Below, in pieces: positions 7,183 through 40,920 of a stretch of 64,000 nucleotides of DNA. Within the stretch, counting starts at the first letter, position 1. Each line of letters starts with the position of its first letter. The notes beneath the pieces were generated by a model. The model was not told where the DNA came from. It saw only the letters and a program-made list of their open reading frames with translations, and made no database searches. This DNA comes from Antedon mediterranea. Lineage: Eukaryota > Echinodermata > Crinoidea > Comatulida > Antedonidae. The translations under genes and the position numbers were made by a program. Where the stretch lies: positions 21,519,001 through 21,583,000 of the forward strand of contig NC_092673.1 of the NCBI RefSeq assembly GCF_964355755.1, written 5' to 3'.

Positions 7183-10100
7183 ATGTCCTTATGGAAAAAG
7201 TCAGTTTTCCCGGCAGCAGCACAGCACCAGAAACTAGATGGTCAAACATACAACTATGGCACGGCAGGCTTTCGTACCAAGTAAGTAGTAACAATAATCA
7301 GTGACGTAACGTACAGAACCAAGGCCACTGGTTTAGGAATTTAGGTACCCTAAGTGGCCCTCCCAACGCTGAAGGCCCTTTTTGCCTTTTTCGACATATT
7401 TTAAGGCCTGTTTTTTTCCTCTGTGCACTGCTCAGGGGTCGCCATAAGCTCCGGAGCCCCTGGGTTTACCCAGCGAGGGCTCATAGCCGTTACGCCACTG
7501 ACAATAATACATATTCTATTAAACTAAACGTCTGAATATATGTTTTATTTACACACATTCATTCCCCGTTTTGCTTTTTTATTGAGGGCGAACTTGCTTG
7601 ATTCAGTGATGTTTCGTTGTGGTTTAATTGCTGTTCTACGATCAAAGAAAACAAAATGTAAGAAATAACACTACTACTTAAAATTTAAACACAACATTGA
7701 AGACTGTATACTATAAAATATAAATTACTAGTATTTTAAAATTTTAACAAGAACCCAGTATTTACTAATATTTCTGTTATTGTCATTATTTTATTGTTTT
7801 GTCATCCCACCCCATTCATCCACCCCATCTGTCAGACCCACACCACCCCATCTATCTTATCTATCAGACCCACCCACCCCATCTATAAAATCTACCTACC
7901 TAATCTATCCCATTTATCCATCCACCCCATCTATCCCATTTATCTATTCCATTCATCCATCCCTTCCACCCATCCCATCTATACCATCCACCCACCCCCA
8001 TCTATCCCATTTATCTATTCCATTCATCCATCCCTTCCACCCATCCCATCTATACCATCCATCCACCCCCATCTATCCCATTTATCTATTCCATTCATTC
8101 ATCCCTTGCACCCATCCCATCTATACCATCCACCCACCCCCATCTATCCCATTTATCTATTCCATTCATCCATCCCTTCCACCCATCCCATCTATACCAT
8201 CCACCCACCCCCATCTATCCCATTTATCTATTCCATTCATCCATCCCTTCCACCCATATCTATTCCATTCATCCATCCCTTCCACCCATCCCATCTATAC
8301 CATCCACCCACCCCCATCTATCCCATTTATCTATTCCATTCATCCATCCCTTCCACCCATCCCATCTATACCATCCACCCACCCCCATCTATCCCATTTA
8401 TCTATTCCATTCATCCATCCCTTCCACCCATCCCATCTATACCATCCACCCACCCCCATCTATCCCATTTATCTATTCCATTCATCCATCCCTTCCACCC
8501 ATCCCATCTATACCATCCACCCACCCCCATCTATCCCATTTATCTATTCCATTCATCCATCCCTTCCACCCATCCCATCTATACCATCCACCCACCCCCA
8601 TTTATCCCATTTATCTATTCCATTCATCCATCCCTTCCACCCATCCCATCTATACCATCCACCCACCCCCATCTATCCCATTTATCTATTCCATTCATCC
8701 ATCCCTTCCACCCATCCCATCTATACCATCCACCCACCCCCATCTATCCCATTTATCTATTCCATTCATCCATCCCTTCCACCCATCCCATCTATACCAT
8801 CCACCCACCCCCATCTATCCCATTTATCTATTCCATTCATCCATCCCTTCCACCCATCCCATCTATACCATCCACCCACCCCCATCTATCCCATTTATCT
8901 ATTCCATTCATCCATCCCTTCCACCCATCCCATCTATACCATCCACCCACCCCCATCTATCCCATTTATCTATTCCATTCATCCATCCCTTCCACCCATC
9001 CCATCTATACCATCCACCCACCCCCATCTATCCCATTTATCTATTCCATTCATCCATCCATTTCCACCCATCCCATCTATACCATCCACCCACCCCCATC
9101 TATCCCATTTATCTATTCCATTCATCCATCCCTTCCACCCATCCCATCTATACCATCCACCCACCCACCCCCATCTATCCCATTTATCTATTCCATTCAT
9201 CCACCCCCATCTATCCCATTTATATATCTATCCCATTCATCTATCCCATTTAAATATTACATCCCATTTATCACATACTTTCAAATATCTTTGCTTTCCT
9301 TATTAGCTAGCATTGGAGTAATGATTACAGCTTCACACAATCCTGAGTGTGACAATGGTGTAAAAATTGTTGAACCAATGGGGGAGATGCTGATTGCTGA
9401 ATGGGAGGTTTATGCAACACAACTGGCTAATGCAAGGTGACTCTTCTTGGCAATTTCCATAGCTAATTTAGATTTTTGCAAATGAACAGACGTATCAGGA
9501 CTTTTTAGTTGTGCTACAAATTGCACTCCTCAACATATCCTGGTGTGCCTTTTGTATCTTGGTGTTTAGAAGTTTATCCAATTTAAGCATGATGTTAATT
9601 GCACAGCACAAAGGCATTTTATGTTAGGCGAGCAATCGCACTCTCATACAAAATGTGAGGCCTACGTTATAACAGTAACTGAGATCATAATCACTTTTAC
9701 TTTATATTAACAGCAATGAGGAGTTAGGAGGTGTAATTGAGGGTATTATAAAAGATAACAACATTGACATGACAGTTTCAGCGAATGTTATCATAGCACG
9801 AGACACAAGGTATGATTTTATTAAAAATAATGGTTAAATTGCAATATTTATTATACATGTAGTTTTGTGATGTCACTACAGCTGTTGTTACCGCATAAAC
9901 AAAAGATCTTTCAGACCACATGTCATTGATTTTTGACACAGCTGATCAAAGTATACACTCTCCTCAGCTATAAACTACATGCTGTATTTATAGTTTCCCT
10001 CAACTACAGCCACCCAATTGGTAATTCATACCAAATGTGATTTAATCCGTTATAACTCTAAACTCTAATAACTTTATCTAAAGTGTAAACAGTTTGTGTA

Positions 10101-21301: not shown

Positions 21302-21310
21302 ATGCCGTAG
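21302..21310 (+). promoter_or_regulatory. Two-codon upstream ORF before the ankyrin start
   Basis: ATG-CCG-TAG ends two bases before the ATG used for the ankyrin protein at 21313. If both lie on the mature transcript, this minimal uORF would reduce initiation at the main ATG. Alternatively TAG at 21308-21310 could serve as a splice acceptor, and then the uORF would not be in the mRNA. Confidence 0.35.
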
Positions 21311-21312
21311 GA

Positions 21313-24121
21313 ATGACAAATATAAGCCCAGCTGGACAGAGGGAAATTATTAGGGTAAGTGTGCTGCTTTACATGCCTTTAGTCTTCTTGTTATTTTTCT
21401 CTTTTCTGTGTTACAACTGGTTACAAAACACGAAGATCCCTCCATCAATCAATTCGCCTACGTTTGATTTCTGCTGCATGCCCTGTGTTTAATTTGTGTA
21501 CACCCGAATAGAATATGAATCGACCACTATACAATTTAATTAAATATATATATATATTTATCGTTTTTTTTTTGTATCTCCATTGAGATCCAGCCACTGA
21601 TACCCACAGCATTGTCATTTGTTCAGTAATTTGCCTTTGGATTTATATATATATATATATGCCTAAAATACGATTTTTTTGTCTTAGGAAATGTGCAATG
21701 CAATTCAACATGGTAGGAGACACGACGTAGAGACGATTCTTGATGATAATGAAGAGTTTATCAATGCAGATGAGGTATGCCTAGGTATATGCATGATATT
21801 TCTAGATGGACCCCTTTTTCCAAAACAGGGTTTATAACGGAGTTTCTAAAGCTTGGTTCCCCCTAGAACGTAACGCAAGGACGTAAACGCAACGCAAGCG
21901 TTTTAACCAATGACAAGCGAAGTTATAGACGGTTAGGAATCACAAGCGAATAAGCCATCGCTTGTGATTGGTCAAATTACTTGCGTTGCGTTACGTCCTT
22001 GCGTTGCGTCGCTAGTGGGAACCACGCTTTAGCGACGCAACGTAAGAAAATGCCCTCCCATTAAGCATGGTTCCCACTAGCGACGCAACGCAAGGACGTA
22101 ACGCAACGCAAGTGAATTGCCCAATCACAAGCGATGGCTTATTCGCTTGTGATTGCTAGCTGTCTATAACTTCGCTTGTCATTGGTTAAAACGCTTGCGT
22201 TGCGTTTACGTCCTTGCGTTACGTTCTAGTGGGAACCAAGCTTTAATGGTGTTTGCGTGAAATCAAACCTGCGATGTTTGCAGCACTGTTGTTGCGTCGT
22301 CGGCTCCCACTTGTGAATACGCAATACAACTTTGCGTCGATACGTCCGCTGCGTTACGTTGCGTTCTAGTGGGAACCACGCTTACGCAACTTTAGGAAAT
22401 GTTAATTGCGCTAGTAGGAACCACGCTTAACGCATTCCGAATTTCGTACAAAACGTACGTGCGTGAACGAAAACGTAACGTAACCGTATTACAGGACCGA
22501 ACTTAGGCTCAGTATGAATATGCGTAAAAAATATGATTTTAAGTGCGTCATTGGCGGTAATGTAAACAATGGTGCTGAAAATACTAATTGTGATGATAAT
22601 TACGTAACCTTTTTACCAAATAGGGTGGAAACATGGTAGCCAAATCTCTTTACCGAAACTTTCTGATGTTGGCCATTGATGCATTGGAGACGGATATATC
22701 AACCTTGCTCATCGATAGAGGGATTGACATCAACCATAAATGCTGGGTTTGTTGTACTGTATTATATATAGCATGATCTATTTAATTCATTTACCCAACT
22801 CTTTAATTCATTTACTCATGTCTTTATTGTTTGTAATATTTGATAACAGTGTGTTAATGGAAAGCAGTCCGCTCGAGATTTAGCTATTGAGAATGGGTTA
22901 AACGACGTCGTAGACATGATAGACAGTAGACTTCCAATTTCAATGGTAAGTAGTTAATTTTTATTTGCAAGGCAGTTTATTTATTACGGTTTGAGTAGTG
23001 TAACGCACAGGCCTGAGACCCTTGGATTAGGAAACCTAAGTTAACCCTCACCTTCGGGTGTTTTTAGCCTTTTTCGGCATATTTTTACCCCTAGGCACTG
23101 CTCAGAGGCTCCTAAGCACCGGGGTCCCTGACTTTAGCCAGTGAGCGCCCATAGCCGTTACGCCACTGGTTTTGATAAAAACCTAATTTCCCTAACTGAT
23201 TTGATACAGCCAATCCCAATTTTGCTGCTGAATACAATTTTTAAAAATAAGTTTACTTTTTTTTATTGACAGCAATTGTTCGCAGCTGTTTCCGATGGAA
23301 GTTTAACCAGAACAAAGCAACTCATTTCTCATATTGACGCTGATATTAACATGAAAGTGGTAAGCAAAATGAATAGAGTATAAAACCCCTCCTTTGTGAC
23401 ACCCTTTGATCCCTAAGCTTGGTTCCCACTAGAACGTAACGCAAGGACGTAAACGCAACGCAAGCGTTTTAACCAATGACAAGCGAAGTTATAGACAGTT
23501 AGCAATCACAAGAGAATAAGCCATCGCTTGTGATTGGTCAATTCATTTGCGTTGCTTTACGTCCTTGCGTTGCGTCGCTAGTGGGAACCACGCTAACGCT
23601 TGGTTCCCACTAGTGACGCAATGTAACGGAATCTACGCAACGTAAGCAAATGCCCTCCCAATAATTGTGTTTGCCCCGCCTGCGTGAAATCAAACCTGCG
23701 ATGTTTGCAGCACTGTCGCGTCGTCGGTTCTTCCCACTTGTGATTACGTAAAGCCACTAGCGGCACAACGCAGCGACGTATTGACGCAAAGTTATGTATT
23801 GCGTAATCACAAGTGGGAACCGACGACGCAACAGTGCTGCAAAAATCGCAGGTTTGATTTCACGTAGGCGGAGCAGACACAATGATTGAAAGGGCAATAC
23901 ATCACTTCGCGTCAATACGTCACTGCGTTGCGTTCTAGTGGGAACCACCCTTTACCTTGCGTATATTGCAGGCCCGTAACCAGGGGGGGATCGGGGGGAT
24001 CGTACGATCCCCCCCGCTGAACAGCGAGTTCCGCTTGGCCTCCCACTTTTTTTTTGCTGGGCATACTAACACAACACGACGATTGTTCACTACAGGCCTA
24101 GTCAAGCCTTAATAAATTAAA

Positions 24122-24155
<34 letters not shown>

Positions 24156-27100
24156 AACTAAAATATAAAAACCTAACACTAAAATTTACAAGATAAGTTC
24201 TATTTCATAACTGCTGAACATCGTGGTTCTGGAGCTAGCGAGCTGTACACAGAGCATAGTTGTTGTTTGGTTGACATAACAGGGTATTCCCCTACACAGG
24301 TCTCCGCGTGCGTGTGTGACGTGCCCAGCCAGCTGCTTGATAGAGAAAGCATGCAGCTCACACGGACGCAAGTGCAAGATGCAATGGTTGAGTGAATTCA
24401 GGAATCATCTTAATTCCATGGTTTTTTACCTAAACACCACATGATGGTGAATATGCCTGTTAAAGTCTCAATGATACGATCCCTAATGTACCATGTTGTT
24501 GCGAGGAGGCTTGAAAGGAGGAGGGATCTAGCCTAATTTCGGTCGGCAAGAGAATGCCGTCCTCTGACAATATAAGGTCGGCAATTGAAATTTGTGGGCT
24601 GGAAATTACACCAACAATATAGTTCATAAACAAAAGAGAATAGCCGGAAATGCGATTTGCGGCCATAGGCCTATAGAGAAAAAAAATTCGAGGGTATGGT
24701 TCCAGTGGCGGATCTAGCGGGGGCGTATTTTTTTTTTAAATTAAAATAGATTTTAAAAACACGTATTGTTTCGACGGTCATCAATCACCGATGGTTTGCA
24801 CATTTTCATAGTGAAAATAGTACGTCGGAGCACATCGTCAGCTTGATCGCATTCCACCAAGCATGTACGTCGACATCCTTTGTGTACTATCAATCTCTAG
24901 CGTTACCAACGATGTGTAAAAGGAGCAAGTTGATAAAAGCCACGTGGTGAGCTTGGTCGCGTTCCACTAAGCAGGCGGCATCCTTTGTGATCGTCACTCC
25001 CGCATTGTAGAGTAGCGGTACCTCAGACGATCAATAGAGTTGATGAAGCCACATGGTCAGTGCTACTATACTACGCGCCCATTTATTAAGTACAATAAAA
25101 ACAAAGACTAGGACTGTATGCCTATGAAAATTATCCCGTTAGGGCTAAATTTTATAACGTATTACTATTAAAATATTAACAATGCTGCAGCATTTCATGA
25201 CCCTTGTTGTTTTATTTGCTTTCCCGTCGATGATTCTCATAAACACATCGCGATGACATCATGACAAAAGAGGTGTTTTGTTTTTTTCAAATCACTAAAT
25301 ATAATGTAATCGAGCCGGACCGCTAATTTTTAAACGATCGTTTAAACCAGGTCGTTGAATATGCCGTGATTTTAATTGTCAAAAACATGACCGTCAGCAG
25401 TCGATGGCTCGGAGTTTCGATAAATCTGTCGTCGCATGTGTTGCGTGGTGAAAACACTCTCAGCAAGTTTGCTTCATTAATATGCATGAGACTCTGTGAC
25501 GACCCGCTTTAACGTGACGTCATTTTACTTTAGCTGCATGCGAAGTATAGTGACCGCGATCGACCCGGCGCGCGTGTAAAAAAATAATACCGGCCTAGAC
25601 TAGGGCAAGTTTATAATAATATAATTTAGGTGAAAAAAATTGTCGCGTTGTAAAAATTTAGATGTAAAGTACAGGCAAGTTGTTAGCTTGCTTTTGGTAC
25701 CCTAGGTAAGTATCAGCTGCATATTCCACATGTCGTAATTTGCGAGCTTTAGAGTGTTTGGTAAATGACATTATGAATTGTTTGTAAATCGTTTTAAACG
25801 ACTTACAATGCGCTAGAATGCCAAAATTTCCCGGGGCCGTCGGCCCCTGGACCCCGACCGGGGGCCCTTGGCGGCCCCCTGGCCCCCAGCCAATGTTTGC
25901 TCGCTTCGCTCGCAAAGCTACGCCACCCCTATTTCAATATCCTGGATCCGCCCCTGGGTTCCACTAAACAACTTAACGATCCACCCCGCCGTCAAACCTG
26001 GTTACGGCCCTGTATTGCGTTACGTTGCGTCACTAGTGGAGACAAGCTTTATGGTGTTCTACTCTATTTAATGACATGCGCATATCTTGGTTCTTGCTCA
26101 AGTTGCTTCTTATACGGTGCTATATCTAGGGACAATAAACTGCGATGTAGTCTCCTGACTACAATTTTTCTCCCACTATATACTATTGCCAAATACGTTA
26201 TACCAACGTTTTTCGGTAAGCCACCAGTACTGTTTGGGACAATGGTCTGTGCTCTAGCTTCCCAATCAGCCTCGTTTTATTGTCTCTAGACATAGTGCCG
26301 TGTGAGAATCGGATTTACCGTTTCGGAAGTTTAATTGACTTTTGTAAATTATTCAAAAATTGTAGAATTTATATGGCGAGAAGACACCGGGATGTTTAGC
26401 ATTCACACTTTTAATGATCGCTATCAAACTCAACCATTCAGATGTAGCCGAGTTACTCGTTCAAGGAAATATAGATGTTGCATTTCAACATCAGGTAATT
26501 TATTGTAGGCCTACATTTACAGGATTTTCTTTCCTCTATACTTATCTCTGCATACAATACAAGAGAACCCCTCCTTTGTGACTCCTATTCAGCTCAAATG
26601 ACCCGCCTATTAAAAATGAAATTTTCAATGTTTAATTTTTTATTGACTATCACCGTACGTTACAGTATTGTCATAGAAAACAAACAAAAAATAGCACAAA
26701 ATAAAAATGAACGTGATCAATATATATTTTAACACTATGGACACCCAAGACACTTGTTTGTTCCCAAAGTTGTCCCTTTAATAGAAGTTTATACATCATG
26801 CATGTATGGTGTGTATATGCTGTACAAACACAGTATTTCTGTACCGTCTACAAAACAGTATTTAAGCTTGATTCCAACTAGACAATACGAGGACGTAAGC
26901 GCAAAGTAAGCGAGTTGACCAATCACAAGCGATGATAATTCAAACTGTCGATTGTCATTGTTCAACTCTCTTGCGTTGCATCTACGTCCTTGCGTTGCGT
27001 TCTAGTGGGAGCCAAGCATAAAGCTTGGTTCCCACTAGAACGTAACGCAAGGACGTAAACGCAATGCAAGCGTTTTAACCAATCACAAGCGATGGCTTAT

Positions 27101-28968
27101 TCGCTTGTGATTGCTAACTGTATATAACTTCGCTTGTCATTGGTTAAAACGCTTGCGTTGCGTTTACGTCCTTGCGTCACGTTCTTGTGGGAACCTCGCT
27201 TAAGTAGTCATAAATACAAATTAGACAAAACGGGATTTAAAATTGGTAGTCCGTATATATTGAAACAAAAATTGTAATATGAATTTTATAATGTTCATAA
27301 TACTTCTGAAGATCTGAAGTGGGACGAACAAAAGGAAAACACAAATAACTGGACTGAGCTTGAGATCTTGCATAAAAACACAGACATAAACATTGTATAA
27401 TAATTGTATAGCCTATAACTTATTTTACAAAAAAAGGAATGGGAGAGGTTGAACCCAGAATCCGATGATGTCTTGGTGGTGTCATACACGGCGCTTGAAC
27501 TAGCTACGCAAAGAGGGATGTATGACGTAGTCAAGATGATCAAAGGTCAACAACTCAAACGCACAGTAGTAAAAGACACGAATGCAATTGATGATGCCAA
27601 ACAGGTATGCAAAAAAAACATATATATAAACAAAATATTAATAAAATAAACGCTAAATTGCTATTTATTATTGGTTCCTACTTTTTGACGCAATGCACGC
27701 AATTATACCAACATGGTGCTATAGATCTCCGGTCACCTGTCGTTTATGATTGGTCGACTCACTTGCGTCAATAGGAGTAATTTATAAAGTTCTTGCCAAA
27801 CTGTCCAACTGCAGTGGTAGTGTAGATCCTATTCTTTCAGTACAACAAATAATTACATACTAGCGACGCAACGCAACGCAATCTACGCAACGTAAGAAAA
27901 TGCCCTTCCAATCATTGCGTTTGCCCCCGCCTGCGTGAAATCAAACCTACGATGTTTGCAGAACTATTGCGTCGTCGGTTCCCACTTGTGATTACGCAAT
28001 ACAACACTTTGCGTCGATACGTCACTGTGTTGCGTTCTAGTGGGAACCACGTTTTAGTGGTAGAATATGCGCCTTGTTGGTTACGGTCCCGAGAGATTGA
28101 CAAAATATGTTGGTTTTTTTGTATTAATAGGCTGACGTCGATACAAATCGTTTAACTAATTCACAAGAAGCACGTGAACTACCAGCTGCAATACCAACCG
28201 TGGAACAAGAAGCACGTGAACTACCAACTTCAATACCAACCGTGGAACAAGATCATTTAGATAATAATATCAACAAATATGAAAATAAAGTGGTAAGTTG
28301 TGTAACCTGTATTTAGATTTATTAAACAAATTAGGAATGTTACACGCAAATAGCATAATACAAATACTGTGCGTGGTTCCCACTAGCGACGCAACGCAAG
28401 GACGTAAACGCAACGCAAGCGTTTAACCAATGACAAGCGAAGTTATAGACAGTTAGCAATCACAAGCGAATAAGCCATCGCTTGTGATTGGTCAATTCAC
28501 TTGCGTTGCGTTACGTCCTTATGTTGCGTCGCTAGTGGGAACCACGCTTACGCAACGTAAGAAAATGCCAATTCAAATAATTGTGTTTTCCCCCCGTCTG
28601 CGTGAAATCAAACCTGCGATGTTTGCAGCACTGTTGCATCGTTGGTTCCCACTTGTGATTACGCAATACAGCACTTTGCGTCGATACGTCGCTGCGTTAC
28701 GTTGCGTTGCGTTCTAGTGGGAACCACGCTTTAGCTTGGTTTCAACTAGCACGCAACGGAATGGAATTGACCAATCACAAGAAACGGTTCGAATAATACA
28801 TCGCTTGGATTAGTGTATTCGCTTGCGTTGCGGCAGATGTCTTTGCGTTGCGTCCTAGAGTGGGAACAAGCTAAAAAATTCACTTAAATTGAGAAATTGA
28901 ACTGTATTCTTTGTTTTTTTCTTGTTTACCAGGCTCACCGACAAAGTTGCTGTTGTATTCTGTCATAG
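21313..28968 (+). CDS. Ankyrin-repeat protein with C-terminal CaaX-like box, nine exons
   Basis: Coding exons: 21313-21354, 21688-21774, 22624-22746, 22850-22945, 23273-23359, 26366-26494, 27437-27604, 28131-28292, 28933-28968. Every intron is phase 0 with GT/AG ends. They join to 930 nt or 309 residues. Five or so weak ankyrin-type helix pairs are visible: about 50-84 (FLMLAID, TLLIDRGIDIN), 88-112 (ARDLAIENGLNDVVDMI), 117-143, 154-184 (TLLMIAI, VAELLVQGNIDV) and 205-226 (TALELATQRGMYDVVKMI). Exons 2-4 and 5-7 form two similar three-exon modules. Exon 8 encodes a 14-residue duplication (QEARELPAAIPTVE, 256-269, and QEARELPTSIPTVE, 270-283). The last exon ends SCCCILS. CILS fits a CaaX farnesylation signal and the two preceding cysteines could be palmitoylated. 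There is no signal peptide or membrane segment. The likely role is a membrane-tethered cytosolic adaptor, but the function is unknown. An unseen upstream exon cannot be excluded. Confidence 0.85.
21847..22440. mobile_element. Cluster of palindromic MITEs, family M1, one nested
   Basis: A first full copy (21847-22031) runs from TAAAGCTTGGTTCCCCCTAG to CTAGTGGGAACCACGCTTTA. A second (22061-22246) is inserted inside a longer M1b variant (about 22023-22383). A decayed end follows to 22440. Each full copy folds on itself almost completely: CGCAAGGACGTAAACGC pairs with GCGTTTACGTCCTTGCG. All lie in ankyrin intron 2. Confidence 0.85.
22993..23168. mobile_element. hAT-like MITE (family H) in ankyrin intron 4
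   Basis: The right end CCGTTACGCCACTG is intact and the left end is decayed (AGTAGTGTAACGCAC). The interior matches the PGM3-intron copies (CATAGCCGTTACGCC, CACTGCTCAGAGGC). Confidence 0.7.
23414..23955. mobile_element. Palindromic MITEs M1 and M1b, head to tail
   Basis: One M1 copy spans about 23414-23595. It is followed directly by an M1b copy (about 23594-23955) with GCGTGAAATCAAACCTGCG and its inverted partner CGCAGGTTTGATTTCACG. A further right end resumes at 26018-26053 beyond the large insertion at 23969-26012. Confidence 0.8.
23969..26012. mobile_element. 2.0 kb DNA transposon, 5-bp TSD TATTG
   Basis: The ends CAGGCCCGTAACCAGG and CCTGGTTACGGCCCTG are inverted copies. TATTG directly flanks both sides (23964-23968 and 26013-26017), a perfect 5-bp duplication. 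The element split a pre-existing M1-family MITE and itself holds a second element (24703-25956). No intact transposase frame is present. It makes up most of ankyrin intron 5. Confidence 0.75.
24703..25956. mobile_element. 1.25 kb DNA transposon nested in the previous one, 5-bp TSD GGTTC
   Basis: The left end CAGTGGCGGATCTAG and the right end CTGGATCCGCCCCTG are inverted with two or three mismatches. GGTTC flanks both sides (24698-24702 and 25957-25961). The right 130 bases are GC-rich, with GGGGCCCTTGGCGGCCCCC near 25860. No long coding frame is found. It is probably related to the elements at 4412 and 23969. Confidence 0.75.
26872..27202. mobile_element. Two palindromic MITEs, family M1
   Basis: A diverged copy (26872-27020) is followed immediately by a well-preserved one (27019-27202). 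Both have GCTTGGTT-type ends and CAATCACAAGCGA / TCGCTTGTGATTG cores. They lie in ankyrin intron 6. Confidence 0.8.
27671..28056. mobile_element. Partial M1 and M1b MITE copies
   Basis: A fragment at 27671-27775 (TTGGTTCCTACT, GTTTATGATTGGTCGACTC) is followed by most of an M1b right half at about 27865-28056. That half has GCGTGAAATCAAACC and ends GTTCTAGTGGGAACCACG. It is in ankyrin intron 7, just before exon 8. Confidence 0.7.
28371..28874. mobile_element. Three adjoining M1-family MITEs
   Basis: M1 (28371-28549), M1b (about 28545-28733) and a third diverged copy (about 28732-28874) abut with no spacer. They fill most of ankyrin intron 8. The first copy is nearly a perfect hairpin. Confidence 0.8.
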
Positions 28969-30094
28969 CGTTGACCAGATATTACCCGAGACAACAAGTT
29001 AAAATGTGTAGGAACATCATAAAAGTAGAGCTAAACAAGTATTGAATCAAATACAGTTTAATTCTAGACTGCAAATATACCTGGAAATTGCCAGATATTA
29101 GGGAGGAACCTTACGAATACGTTTTCTGAGATAAACTTTGTATACTACTGGATCCCGAAATTCGTTTTTGTGGAAATCACCCAAAATATGAACTTTTCAG
29201 AATTAAATTATTATGATCTGGTAGGTCTGGTGAGTATGTGTACGCATCAGTTTTAACTTGTTGGGTCATTTGAGTCTCCACTCATAAAAAGGTGACTTCT
29301 AGGTGACTAAAATACATATTTAAACTGTCCGCTTGTGATTAGTCAATTCGCTTACGTTGCGGTTGCGCCTTACATCTTTGCGTTGCGTTCTAACGAGAAC
29401 AAGGTTTAACAAGTCAACATTTGGCTATTTTTTTCCTGTACTATAGTACATGGATTTTTTTTCGAAAAATTGCCAAAATATCTTTTATTGAGGTAACATG
29501 CGCGGACCCCATTATGTGATTTTGCGCATATCACATTCAGTAACCAGTCATGTGAATGCGCAGACAATATTATGTGATTTTGCTCATGTTACATGATATA
29601 GTAACCAGTTATATGATTCTGCGCATGTCACATTATGATATACAGTATTAACCAGATGTCAATACGAAGGTAAAAATCGGGTCACTTTTATTGACGTTCA
29701 AAATTCAATTGTGTTACCTATATATATTCAATTACAGACACATACCGTATCTTAGAAAAACTGTACTATAGTACAGGGATTTTTTTTTTCAAAAAATGGC
29801 CAAATTTCGACCTTTTTATTTTTATTACTCGGGGTACCCGAGTCTAGTACTTACTCATTTTCTCCTTCTCTTCCTCCATCTGGACACTATTGAGTAAAAA
29901 GTGCGATTTTTAAAGTACTACTCCTCCCTTATTCGTTATAGTATTGAGCTGGGATTTGGCATGAACATACTACAGGGACATGTCCTCAAAGCTATAGAGC
30001 CGGATTTTTAATTTTTTGTTAATTAATTTGTTTAATTAAGAAGCCACAATGTGTGACACACACCACAGCGTTATGTAGTTATATGGTTATATGC
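28969..30094. other. Ankyrin 3' flank and repeat-like DNA
   Basis: No clear AATAAA follows the ankyrin stop closely. A decayed M1 fragment lies at about 29330-29405. About 29505-29650 is a three-copy repeat of roughly 65 bp with ATTATGTGATTTTGCGCAT-type words. TACTATAGTACA-G/T-GGATTTTTTTTC occurs near 29441 and 29764. Confidence 0.5.
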
Positions 30095-33216: not shown

Positions 33217-36200
33217 TTATTCCACTTCACAGATATCATTCCAATACGTATTCCAATCTTTTGGACGGATGAATTTTCGTTCATACACGTTGGCGCTTTT
33301 ACGATGGTACGATATACGCCAATATTGATCTCCTTTGAAGAAAAATAACGTTCGATGTTTTTGAGAATAATACGTTGCGTCGAAATTACTTGGGAGTGGA
33401 TCATCGTTAACTGTTGGAAATCGTGGTGCATATACGTCATTTATTGGCTTTGGATAGCCGGAAATAACACTGTGTGAGTTTACATCAAATACATATACCT
33501 GCAATAAAAAAAAAGATCTTTATTGAAAATGACAAAAGAACATGTCTCTAGCAGGATTTTTAAAAAGAGAGAGAATTGAACGTTTTTTGTTGGTATTGTT
33601 TTAGGGATTCCTTAAGCCCAGCCTACACTAGCAAACTTTACATAAAGCCTTGTCTACACTAACTATCACACTTTATGTGACAAAAAAATGTGATGTGCAC
33701 AAATATGTAGTGATATGGTCAAATATGGTAGTGATATGACATCATCATGTCCATATATGGGCAAATCACATTTTTTCACATAAAGTTTGCTTGTGTAGGC
33801 TGGGCTTAAGTTCGAGTTTGCCACACTGTTTGACAAGACACGGCCTAACTTGTTTTCTGCAAACTGCCGAAGTTTGTCACCTAGTAACCATAGGAAAACT
33901 TTTATTTATTTCAAACTTCGAGTTTGCAAACTGAAGCTAGGCGTATAAGTACATTACAAGGTGACATAGTTATTTTTGCTTATTCTTTGCATCCCTGATG
34001 AACTATATTTGTAATTTTTATGTAGAGAGATTAATGAATAAAATAACTACATTCTACAAACTTACCTGAGATCCTTTAAAGAAATAGATATTTTTGTCTT
34101 TTTTATCAACGTGTGCAGTGTCTATGTTGTCTGGGACGCCAGGAAATCTTGAGCTGATTGAATCCACAGTTCGATTCAGTAGCGCGCTTACATTGTTATA
34201 GAAATATATAGTGACATTTACTCCTAAAGTAGAAAAAACAATAAATACTTAAATTATCTCATAATTCAACTATTATATTTATGTTATATTTGTGAATAAG
34301 GCAGGGAGGATGCCTGAAAAATATTGGAGACTTTTTGTTATTAAAGCCCAATTTACACAGTAACGGTAAGCGGAAAACCGCGTAGCTTGTCCCACATAGA
34401 ATCTGTATCTATACTGGGCGGTAACCGCCCGTCCGCACCGCGCTTTGTTTAGATGGTCATAATGAATAGCATAGAATCTATATTTGTATTACCGTTGCCG
34501 CTTGTCTGTGTAAATTTGCCTTTAAGGCGATACAACTAGAGTTTAAGGCTAATATACTTTTTGCACATGCTCATACGTTTCTGTGCGTACGCAAAATGTA
34601 AGACGCGACTGCTGAGTGCATATTATGTTTAACGCTATGCCTATATATGTCAAGCGTCATGAGACTATTGATGATTAAAAAGGGCAAAAACGCTACATAC
34701 CCGAGAAAAAGTAAAGTGTATTGTCCACCTTGCGTATTTGAAGAACAGCATCAATTTTGGTCGGGACACCTGGCCAGTGAGAACTTGTAGGTCTCGGTTC
34801 TCCATCTCTCGTTTTATTGGACTTGTTCTCATAAATCCAGGTAAGGCTGTCGTTGAAGAAATAGGTTGTGTACACACGTGACGTGCCACCAGCCTTTGGC
34901 CGGACCCAGTCGACAATGCTGTCAAATCTACCGGAGCATTTTGCTATAATAATTAATTATAAATCATTTATATTAGTAACTTAAATTAAGTTATACAATT
35001 AATTCAATTAAAAAGTATAAATTTGTCTATAACTCGTTAACATCAGCCCATCATCACACGTTAGCTCATCATCGTCCTTATATTTCATCAACAACAATAC
35101 AGTATATAACAATTGTCGTATTCGATTTTGACTTTTACCAATGAGTTTTTTCGTTTAGTACTAATTTATCTATTTTGAGCGTTGAGATTGTTCTTAACGC
35201 TTGGTTCCCACTGTGACGCAACGCAAAGACGTAGACGCAACGCAAGCGAGATGACCAATGGCAACCGACAGTTCGATGATCCATCAACTCGTTTGACGGT
35301 TGCACTTACGTTGTTGCGTTGCGTCCTAAGTGGGAACCAATCTTAACGAAAAAGCTTGCCTTGCCAACTTTTTCTATTCAAATGACTTTCTGTTGAGCAG
35401 AATCTCTTTAAAGGTTACCGTTAGAACACAAAAAAGTACTCAACGAATCTTTGACAACGAAAGTTCCCATTCGAATATGAAAATTATCTTAACTATGTAA
35501 CTATGTAACAGTTGAATCAGTTAAGTATCAGTACAATATATAACATTTAAGTATCTTACAATATATAACAGTTAAGTATCTTACAATATATAACAATATC
35601 TTACAATATATTCCATGAATGTCCTGTCTGTCTGAACTGTGCAATCCAAAATTGTTCTGATCGAATGATGTATAATAAGGGTACATTATAGCCTGTGTGT
35701 TTGCGGAATGATTCAACCCCAATACATGGCCTATCTCGTGCACTGCAGTCTTCAGAAGACTTATGCCTTGATTTGAAGCAATCGTAAAATGCACGTCGTT
35801 GTTAAAGTGTATGCCAGTATCGATGACGTGCGAATATACGGTTGGATTTAAGCTACCGTCATCCTGAGCAAACGGGTGGCCGTCGCTATGTGGACCTGAA
35901 AGATACAATAACAATAATAATAATTTCAATTAATAAAATCTGTGCCGTGTGATATAGACTGAGTTTAGACAATTACATGAGTATAGGCACTGTGAGGTGA
36001 CAAATGTATTACATGCGCCATGTTGTGGTCGTTTTAATACGACTAACTCTAAAGACGGACGGGAAAGGGTGCTGCAACATACAAAGATCTAGTGATTGTA
36101 TTTCGATATTTTGGGAAACCGGTTAGATCAAGACACAACTTTGCGCTGATTACTAGCTGCATTATGGGAGTATGTTTCCATACGTGTTTGATCCAAAAAA

Positions 36201-39979: not shown

Positions 39980-40920
39980 CAACAAAAAACAACTCATTCA
40001 TAGATTAACTGACCATGCACCGCAGGAAAGTAGGACAGATCTGAAGTGATCTGACCATTACTGGACGGACCAGTACAGAACAGGTCTGGAGTGATCTGAC
40101 CATTACTGGACGAACAAGTACAGTACAGGTCCGAGAAGTTATGTTTATCACATAACCATGTCACCCCTGGGTGAAAAAGAAAAAGGAAAGTACTGTCACT
40201 AGTAACGTGTGCAGAACACAATGTGATGTAAATAATAGCCATTGAGTAGTTTATGAGAACAATGCCATCGAAACACCCCCATTTTTGCTGTTAATATATC
40301 AATTTTTCAATAAATCTATATTTTTATTCAACTCATGGTAGTAAAACTCCATCGTTCACCCAGCGCCAACCTTTACAAAAACTCAGCAGTAACAATATTT
40401 ATTAAAACAATCTAAATCAGGTGAAATATTAGAAGCAAATATTTTGAGAACTAGAAGACGTTTGAGTGCACTTATCATTCCTGTTATCTTATCCTGAAAT
40501 TATAATTTTCCACAATAACAAAATCAGTGGGGCTAATTTAGAAAATATGAGGCTTTGTAAGAAAGCCATTCTCTAGTGGTTTAGTTTGTAGCATTGGAAC
40601 TTGCAGCGCCCAAAGCTATAAATTATCATTTTTCTACAATGAATTCTTTGAAATTCTTTGTAATTCGGAGAGTGACAAGACGTGAGCGTGTAAAAACTCC
40701 CGAAAAAATTAACAACAACTAACTAAAAGTAACATAGGCGGTTTACCAAGAGTCGATATAGTTAACATATCCACGTCTGTCTGACTAATCTCTTTTTAAA
40801 AAAAACTCGATATAACAATTAGAGCAAAGTTGCTCATGAGCAAAGTTGCTCATGAACAAAGTTGCTCATGAGCAAAGTTGCTAATGAACAATCTGCTCAT
40901 GATCAAACCAAGCTTTACAC
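39980..40920. repeat. Two local tandem repeats
   Basis: A roughly 53-bp unit (GTGATCTGACCATTACTGGACG) is present twice at about 40040-40140. A 17-bp unit (AGCAAAGTTGCTCATG) is present about five times at 40826-40905. No gene is recognised around them. Confidence 0.75.

What the first reader, a model, noticed from the sequence alone, without database searches (positions are those of the whole stretch)
21313..28968. Ankyrin-repeat protein ending in a Ras-like lipidation signal
The reconstructed 309-residue protein ends SCCCILS. The last four residues fit a CaaX box with terminal Ser, which usually directs farnesylation, and two cysteines directly before it could be palmitoylated, as in some Ras proteins. 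A tiny last exon of only 11 codons carries this signal, so splicing could switch membrane anchoring on or off. I do not recognise the protein as a described family.
Basis: partly seen in the sequence, partly recalled or inferred. Interest (0 to 1): 0.75.

Follow-up and report, generated by a model that had tools for sequence, protein, structure and literature searches.

The report
Small ankyrin protein with CaaX tail
An animal gene appears to encode a small ankyrin-repeat adaptor ending in a Ras-like lipid-anchor signal; proteins that combine these two parts are already known, so it is a plausible but fairly ordinary new example, not yet confirmed by transcripts or relatives.

Summary
Nine exons (21313-28968, +) join, every junction in phase 0, into 309 residues ending AHRQSCCCILS-stop. 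Pfam confirms ankyrin repeats (Ank_2, 2e-11), probably two three-exon triplets, about one repeat per exon. The last acceptor is among the 13 best of 6109 AG sites examined. Of 2895 distinct AG-to-stop ends in the window, 8 fit a strict CaaX box and one, this one, also has further cysteines. CVLS and CIIS are farnesyltransferase substrates (PMC11152559, passages), so CILS should be one by analogy. The genome has prenyltransferase-type and ICMT-type matches.

The lipid-anchor reading is good. "Splicing could switch anchoring" has no transcript evidence; only an intron-retained form without CaaX can be written. Eleven codons are only the coding part of the last exon. Ankyrin + CaaX is a known design (TIMAP, MYPT3, Legionella AnkB); this protein has no RVxF-type PP1-binding match, so it is not filed there. 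No paralogue was found. Orthologues could not be searched. New member of a known kind; interest modest.

The parts
21302..21310 (+). two-codon upstream ORF (ATG CCG TAG) just before the start codon
   Evidence: read; function not tested; not known to be in the transcript
21313..21354 (+). exon 1, coding (14 codons, start ATG)
   Evidence: donor 10.5 bits
21688..21774 (+). exon 2, ankyrin repeat 1 (29 codons)
   Evidence: repeat borders by eye
22624..22746 (+). exon 3, ankyrin repeat 2 (41 codons); weak donor GTTTGT
22850..22945 (+). exon 4, ankyrin repeat 3 (32 codons); weak acceptor
23273..23359 (+). exon 5, ankyrin repeat 4 (29 codons)
26366..26494 (+). exon 6, ankyrin repeat 5 (43 codons); holds the single-repeat Pfam Ank match; weak acceptor
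27437..27604 (+). exon 7, ankyrin repeat 6 and start of linker (56 codons); weak acceptor
28131..28292 (+). exon 8, hydrophilic linker (54 codons)
28163..28252 (+). 42-bp tandem repeat, 2.1 copies, in the linker
   Evidence: also D10
28293..28932 (+). intron 8 (640 nt); its retention would end the protein at 28314-28316 without a CaaX box
28933..28968 (+). coding part of exon 9: AHRQSCCCILS-stop; CaaX = CILS, Cys306
29202..29207 (+). first ATTAAA after the stop, candidate polyadenylation signal
   Evidence: unverified

Best explanation
A real, apparently single-copy gene for a small adaptor protein. Six divergent ankyrin repeats (two triplets, about one repeat per exon) form the binding surface. 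A roughly 70-residue hydrophilic linker leads to a C-terminal CaaX box. Inferred mechanism: farnesyltransferase farnesylates Cys306; ILS is cut off and the cysteine methylated (RCE1-type and ICMT-type enzymes); Cys304 and/or Cys305 can then be S-acylated, holding the ankyrin module on the plasma or Golgi membrane, where it recruits a partner. Shown: sequence, exon structure as read from DNA, ankyrin identity, matches to prenyltransferase-type and ICMT-type families in the genome. Inferred: the transcript, lipid attachment, location, partner.
For: Open 309-residue spliced frame, all phase 0; Ank_2 2e-11. Taken apart, exons 5-7 give Ank_2 at 4.4e-08, above cut-off, and exons 2-4 at 0.004, below it. 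The halves align with a local score of 67 against a shuffle mean of 27.6, sd 5.0, and 0 of 2000 shuffles as good. Exon 9 acceptor: 13 of 6109 AG sites examined on both strands score as high, this one included. Strict CaaX ends: 8 of 2895 distinct AG-to-stop ends, this one included; with a further Cys, 1 of 2895, this one. CVLS and CIIS are modified by human FTase in yeast (PMC11152559, passages), and CILS differs from each by one aliphatic swap. The residues before the box fit by eye the linker rule of PMC1175975 (passages). The genome has three loci with PF00432 matches, two with PPTA alpha-type matches and one ICMT match.
Against: No RNA, no orthologue, no paralogue, so the last exon rests on splice-site and tail statistics alone. 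Four splice sites are weak. The first ankyrin triplet alone is below Pfam's cut-off. CILS together with 'farnesyltransferase' and 'CAAX' gave 0 papers, so its farnesylation is by analogy. PF00432 also covers squalene-cyclase-type repeats (recalled) and the ICMT family rang in 5 of 14 control prokaryotes, so these matches do not by themselves name the enzymes; RCE1 was not searched. S-acylation and partner are untested.
Confidence: 0.62

Rival explanations
1. The ankyrin gene is real but its last coding exon is wrong: the true 3' end is another exon or a retained intron 8, and the SCCCILS tail is a chance reading.
For: No transcript or orthologue evidence; retention of intron 8 gives a clean short end VSCVTCI-stop; other AG sites lie in and after intron 8; 7 other strict CaaX ends occur among the 2895 ends of the same window.
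Against: Acceptor at 28933 scores 3.8 bits or more above every other one listed between 28293 and 31300; strict CaaX ends are 8 of 2895 distinct ends and with an added Cys 1 of 2895, ours included in both.
Confidence: 0.17
2. The tail is real but is geranylgeranylated or only S-acylated, not farnesylated.
For: Three adjacent cysteines could be S-acylated; PF00432 matches lie at three loci (which enzyme is which was not tested). One passage of PMC11152559 lists CVLS among sequences better modified by human than by yeast GGTase-I.
Against: X = Ser; another passage of the same paper says CVLS was unmodified by human GGTase-I, and a Ras2-CVLS reporter did not shift without FTase. The two passages on GGTase-I do not agree.
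Confidence: 0.12
3. It is a diverged member of the TIMAP/MYPT3 (PPP1R16) phosphatase-targeting family.
For: Ankyrin repeats plus C-terminal prenylation motif, as described for TIMAP and MYPT3 (PMC3560227, passages); fly MYPT-75D, most similar to MYPT3, also has a C-terminal CAAX (PMC3723691, passages).
Against: No RVxF-type PP1 motif in the 309 residues (pattern recalled); 309 residues with six short-exon repeats in two triplets, where TIMAP has 567 residues and five repeats.
Confidence: 0.05
4. The model is a decaying pseudogene or a chance chain of open pieces.
For: Four weak splice sites; foldback repeats in five of the eight introns.
Against: No stop or frameshift in 309 codons, coding-like codon-position GC and 0 of 20000 random draws open, though the exons were chosen for being open; Ank_2 well above cut-off.
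Confidence: 0.04

Closest known systems
TIMAP (PPP1R16B) and MYPT3 (PPP1R16A); fly MYPT-75D
   Same: TIMAP and MYPT3: ankyrin repeats with a C-terminal prenylation motif that mediates association with the plasma membrane (PMC3560227, passages). MYPT-75D: C-terminal CAAX, most similar to MYPT3 (PMC3723691, passages; its ankyrin repeats are recalled, the paper's text has no 'ankyrin')
   Different: TIMAP and MYPT3 carry a PP1-binding motif; TIMAP has 567 residues and five repeats. This protein has no RVxF match. The gene symbols are recalled
Legionella AnkB effector (strain AA100/130b)
   Same: Ankyrin repeats and a CaaX box farnesylated at Cys -4, membrane anchoring (PMC5506055, passages)
   Different: Bacterial F-box effector modified by the host; here a spliced gene without an F-box match
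H-Ras C terminus (CVLS)
   Same: Cys-aliphatic-aliphatic-Ser box (CVLS) with nearby upstream cysteines (recalled)
   Different: No GTPase match in Pfam; the extra cysteines are directly adjacent to the CaaX cysteine

Membership tests
Ankyrin-repeat proteins | Match to ankyrin-repeat profile above curated cut-off | tested here: met
   Ank_2 44.7 bits vs 27.3, Ank 33.6 vs 21.1, Ank_3 28.5 vs 22.3; first triplet alone 18.1, below cut-off
CaaX protein, farnesyltransferase type | Cys at -4, aliphatic a2, X such as Ser | tested here: met
   CILS-stop; CVLS and CIIS as verified neighbours
CaaX protein, farnesyltransferase type | Flexible hydrophilic linker of about 11 residues before the Cys | tested here: inconclusive
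   ENKVAHRQSCC by eye fits the rule in PMC1175975 (passages); PrePS was not available
CaaX protein, farnesyltransferase type | Prenyl group actually attached | not testable with these tools
   needs a labelling or localisation experiment
PPP1R16 (TIMAP/MYPT3) | PP1-binding RVxF-type motif | tested here: not met
   pattern [RK]x0-1[VI]{P}[FW] (recalled) has no match
PPP1R16 (TIMAP/MYPT3) | Ankyrin repeats plus C-terminal CaaX | tested here: met
PPP1R16 (TIMAP/MYPT3) | Sequence kinship to PPP1R16 members | not tested
   no animal protein collection on hand; solved structures gave no match at E 0.001 or better (best 0.058, MIB1)

The most novel reading that the evidence does not exclude
A lineage-specific ankyrin adaptor whose lipid anchor is carried by a separable last coding exon, so that intron-8 retention makes a soluble form and splicing makes a doubly lipidated, membrane-bound form.
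Probability: 0.1. Interest if true: 0.5.

Novelty: new member of a known kind. Interest (0 to 1): 0.25.

Why it matters
If confirmed, it adds a small ankyrin adaptor without a recognisable phosphatase-binding motif to the known ankyrin-CaaX proteins, and would suggest that this pairing arose more than once. It would not change how prenylation or ankyrin repeats are understood.

Tried and rejected
Paralogue search: the whole protein (7 matches at E up to 10, all in this gene) and exons 5-7 without the last 15 residues (3 matches, all in this gene) found no other copy. These searches start from a loose first look (8 and 3 candidates scored) and gave no separate match for exons 1 and 9, so they can miss diverged copies and short exons. 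The six-frame comparison of the window itself found no second copy (9 of the 10 hits are this gene's exons; the tenth, at 40800, has E 7.3). The Ank_2 family search scored 150 of 827 candidates, and none of the listed matches lies in the window, so it says nothing about this gene; it was not followed further.

Tail search: a broad pattern (450 matches, reversed-pattern control 273, list cut) was too loose, because TRR also admits TGG and NTN many residues. A narrower one (86 matches, control 2; most are one repeat reading CCCIFS-stop) held one other CCCILS-stop, at C4:11734896-11734916. I fetched 10,000 bases there; its frame has a stop directly before CCC, and no similarity to this protein was found in that stretch (best phmmer E 3.8, best blastp E 0.93), so I take it as chance.

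Mended on checking: the first tail count (12 strict and 2 Cys-doubled of 4669 tails) counted several AG sites that share one stop. By distinct ends it is 8 and 1 of 2895; both Cys-doubled rows were this same tail.

Literature: ankyrin repeat + CAAX + prenylation, 55 papers, 25 listed; TIMAP + CAAX + ankyrin, 4 papers; CILS with farnesyltransferase and CAAX, 0 papers; ankyrin repeat + CAAX + echinoderm, 4 papers, judged irrelevant from titles and abstract starts; MYPT3/CAAX/prenylation and CVLS/palmitoylation terms, listings; Antedon genome terms, 0 papers, so the organism is not identified. Toxoplasma prenylome (passages): 'ankyrin' only in a reference. PelC/PelE paper (passages): ankyrin repeats named only as a general effector feature, for AnkB, and in references. 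PMC9231725: none of CILS, CVLS, ankyrin in the text. No paper was read whole.

Rejected: Rab-type double geranylgeranylation, because it was known only for Rab GTPases (PMC1175975 of 2005, passage). The KH_PARP14_2 match is below cut-off.

Full report
What is there. Nine exons between 21313 and 28968 on the + strand, all beginning and ending in phase 0, give 309 residues ending AHRQSCCCILS-stop. The frame has no internal stop, codon-position GC is 0.52/0.34/0.36, and 0 of 20000 random draws of the eight pre-terminal exon lengths from the window were all open; as the exons were chosen for being open, this last number flatters the model. Introns are 333, 849, 103, 327, 3006, 942, 526 and 640 nt. 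Splice sites are mixed by an approximate matrix recalled from general consensus: strong at seven of eight donors (7.9 to 10.5 bits) and at the acceptors of exons 2, 5 and 9; middling at exons 3 and 8 (5.2, 5.9); weak at the exon 3 donor (1.8) and at the acceptors of exons 4 (1.2), 6 (0.1) and 7 (-1.2). The window lies in a 354-Mb assembly of 18 contigs; the organism was not identified.

The ankyrin part. Pfam gives Ank_2 at 2e-11, Ank at 4e-08 and Ank_3 at 1.4e-06, all above cut-off. Exons 2-4 and 5-7 (the latter without the last 15 residues) align with 27% identity; the local score of the two halves is 67 against 2000 shuffles with mean 27.6 and maximum 51. Exon 3 pairs best with 6 and exon 4 with 7; exon 2 shows no preference for exon 5 (scores 15, 17 and 16 against exons 5, 6 and 7). 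The first triplet alone scores below Pfam's cut-off (18.1 bits). I read this as six repeats, about one per exon; the repeat borders are by eye. Ordinary descent of ankyrin repeats from one another would also give such similarity, so a single triplet duplication is likely but not proven.

The tail. The exon 9 acceptor scores 10.3 bits; 13 of the 6109 AG sites examined on both strands score as high, this one included. Of these sites 4669 lead to a tail of four or more residues with a stop within 200 codons (1440 dropped), ending at 2895 distinct stops; 25 of the 2895 ends fit a lax CaaX pattern, 8 a strict one, and 1, this one, a strict one with a further Cys within four residues. Among acceptors of 4 bits or more there are 683 distinct ends, with 6, 4 and 1. 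So the end is unlikely, but not impossible, by chance. Exon 9 is not tiny as an exon: 11 codons is only its coding part.

Would it be lipidated? In passages of PMC11152559 human FTase expressed in yeast modifies CVLS (H-Ras) and CIIS (Ras2). On GGTase-I the passages differ: one lists CVLS among sequences better modified by the human than the yeast enzyme, another says CVLS was unmodified by the human enzyme. CILS combines CVLS and CIIS; CILS itself was not found in print (0 papers; also absent from the main text of PMC11152559 and PMC9231725). PMC1175975 (passages) describes a flexible, hydrophilic linker of up to 11 residues; ENKVAHRQSCC fits by eye. The genome holds three loci with PF00432 matches, two with PPTA alpha-type matches and one ICMT match. 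Which enzymes these are was not tested: PF00432 is shared with squalene cyclases (recalled), and the ICMT family also rang in 5 of 14 control prokaryotes. RCE1 was not searched. Palmitoylation of Cys304/305 is inference.

Splice switching. Retention of intron 8 would give VSCVTCI-stop, without CaaX. Other acceptors listed in intron 8 score at most 6.5 bits. Nothing shows that any such transcript exists.

Relatives. In its own genome no other copy was found, within the limits of that search. The one other CCCILS-stop is taken as a chance reading. No animal genome collection could be searched, so conservation of the tail, the most important test, is open. In the solved-structure set nothing matched at 0.001 or better.

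Known comparison. Ankyrin repeats with a C-terminal prenylation motif are described in TIMAP and MYPT3 and in Legionella AnkB; fly MYPT-75D has a C-terminal CAAX (its ankyrin repeats are recalled). This protein shares the layout but lacks an RVxF match and an F-box match, so it would work like them in anchoring but is not filed with either. Verdict: a likely real, modestly interesting new member of a known kind.

Noticed in passing
window 21847-22245, 23414-23954, 26890-27204, 27859-28056, 28369-28733: Foldback, MITE-like repeats (GGTTCCCACTAG...; adjacent arms of up to 183 nt, 96% complementary) sit in introns 2, 5, 6, 7 and 8 of this gene; the 12-base core occurs 16 times in the window, both strands.
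   Followed up: partly
window 33217-35929, - strand: A matrix-metalloproteinase-like gene lies convergent to this one: Peptidase_M10 at 7.6e-24 in one open frame and hemopexin matches in two others.
   Followed up: partly
window 28163-28252: A 42-bp tandem repeat (2.1 copies, 95% matches) in the linker exon keeps the frame and suggests a recent in-frame duplication.
   Followed up: partly
window 21302-21310: A minimal upstream ORF (ATG CCG TAG) ends two bases before the start codon.
   Followed up: no
window, whole: The palindrome TAGGCCTA occurs 33 times in 64 kb, far above the roughly one expected for an 8-mer (own estimate).
   Followed up: no
window 7740-9437, + strand: A 566-residue open frame whose first 70 residues (all that was shown) are rich in Pro, His, Ile and Ser in short repeats, with two more long overlapping frames; probably a simple-repeat array.
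   Followed up: no
G000, many places such as C1:17778701-17778721: The 21-mer TGTTGTTGTATATTTTCATGA, probably part of a dispersed repeat, makes up most of the 86 pattern matches.
   Followed up: no
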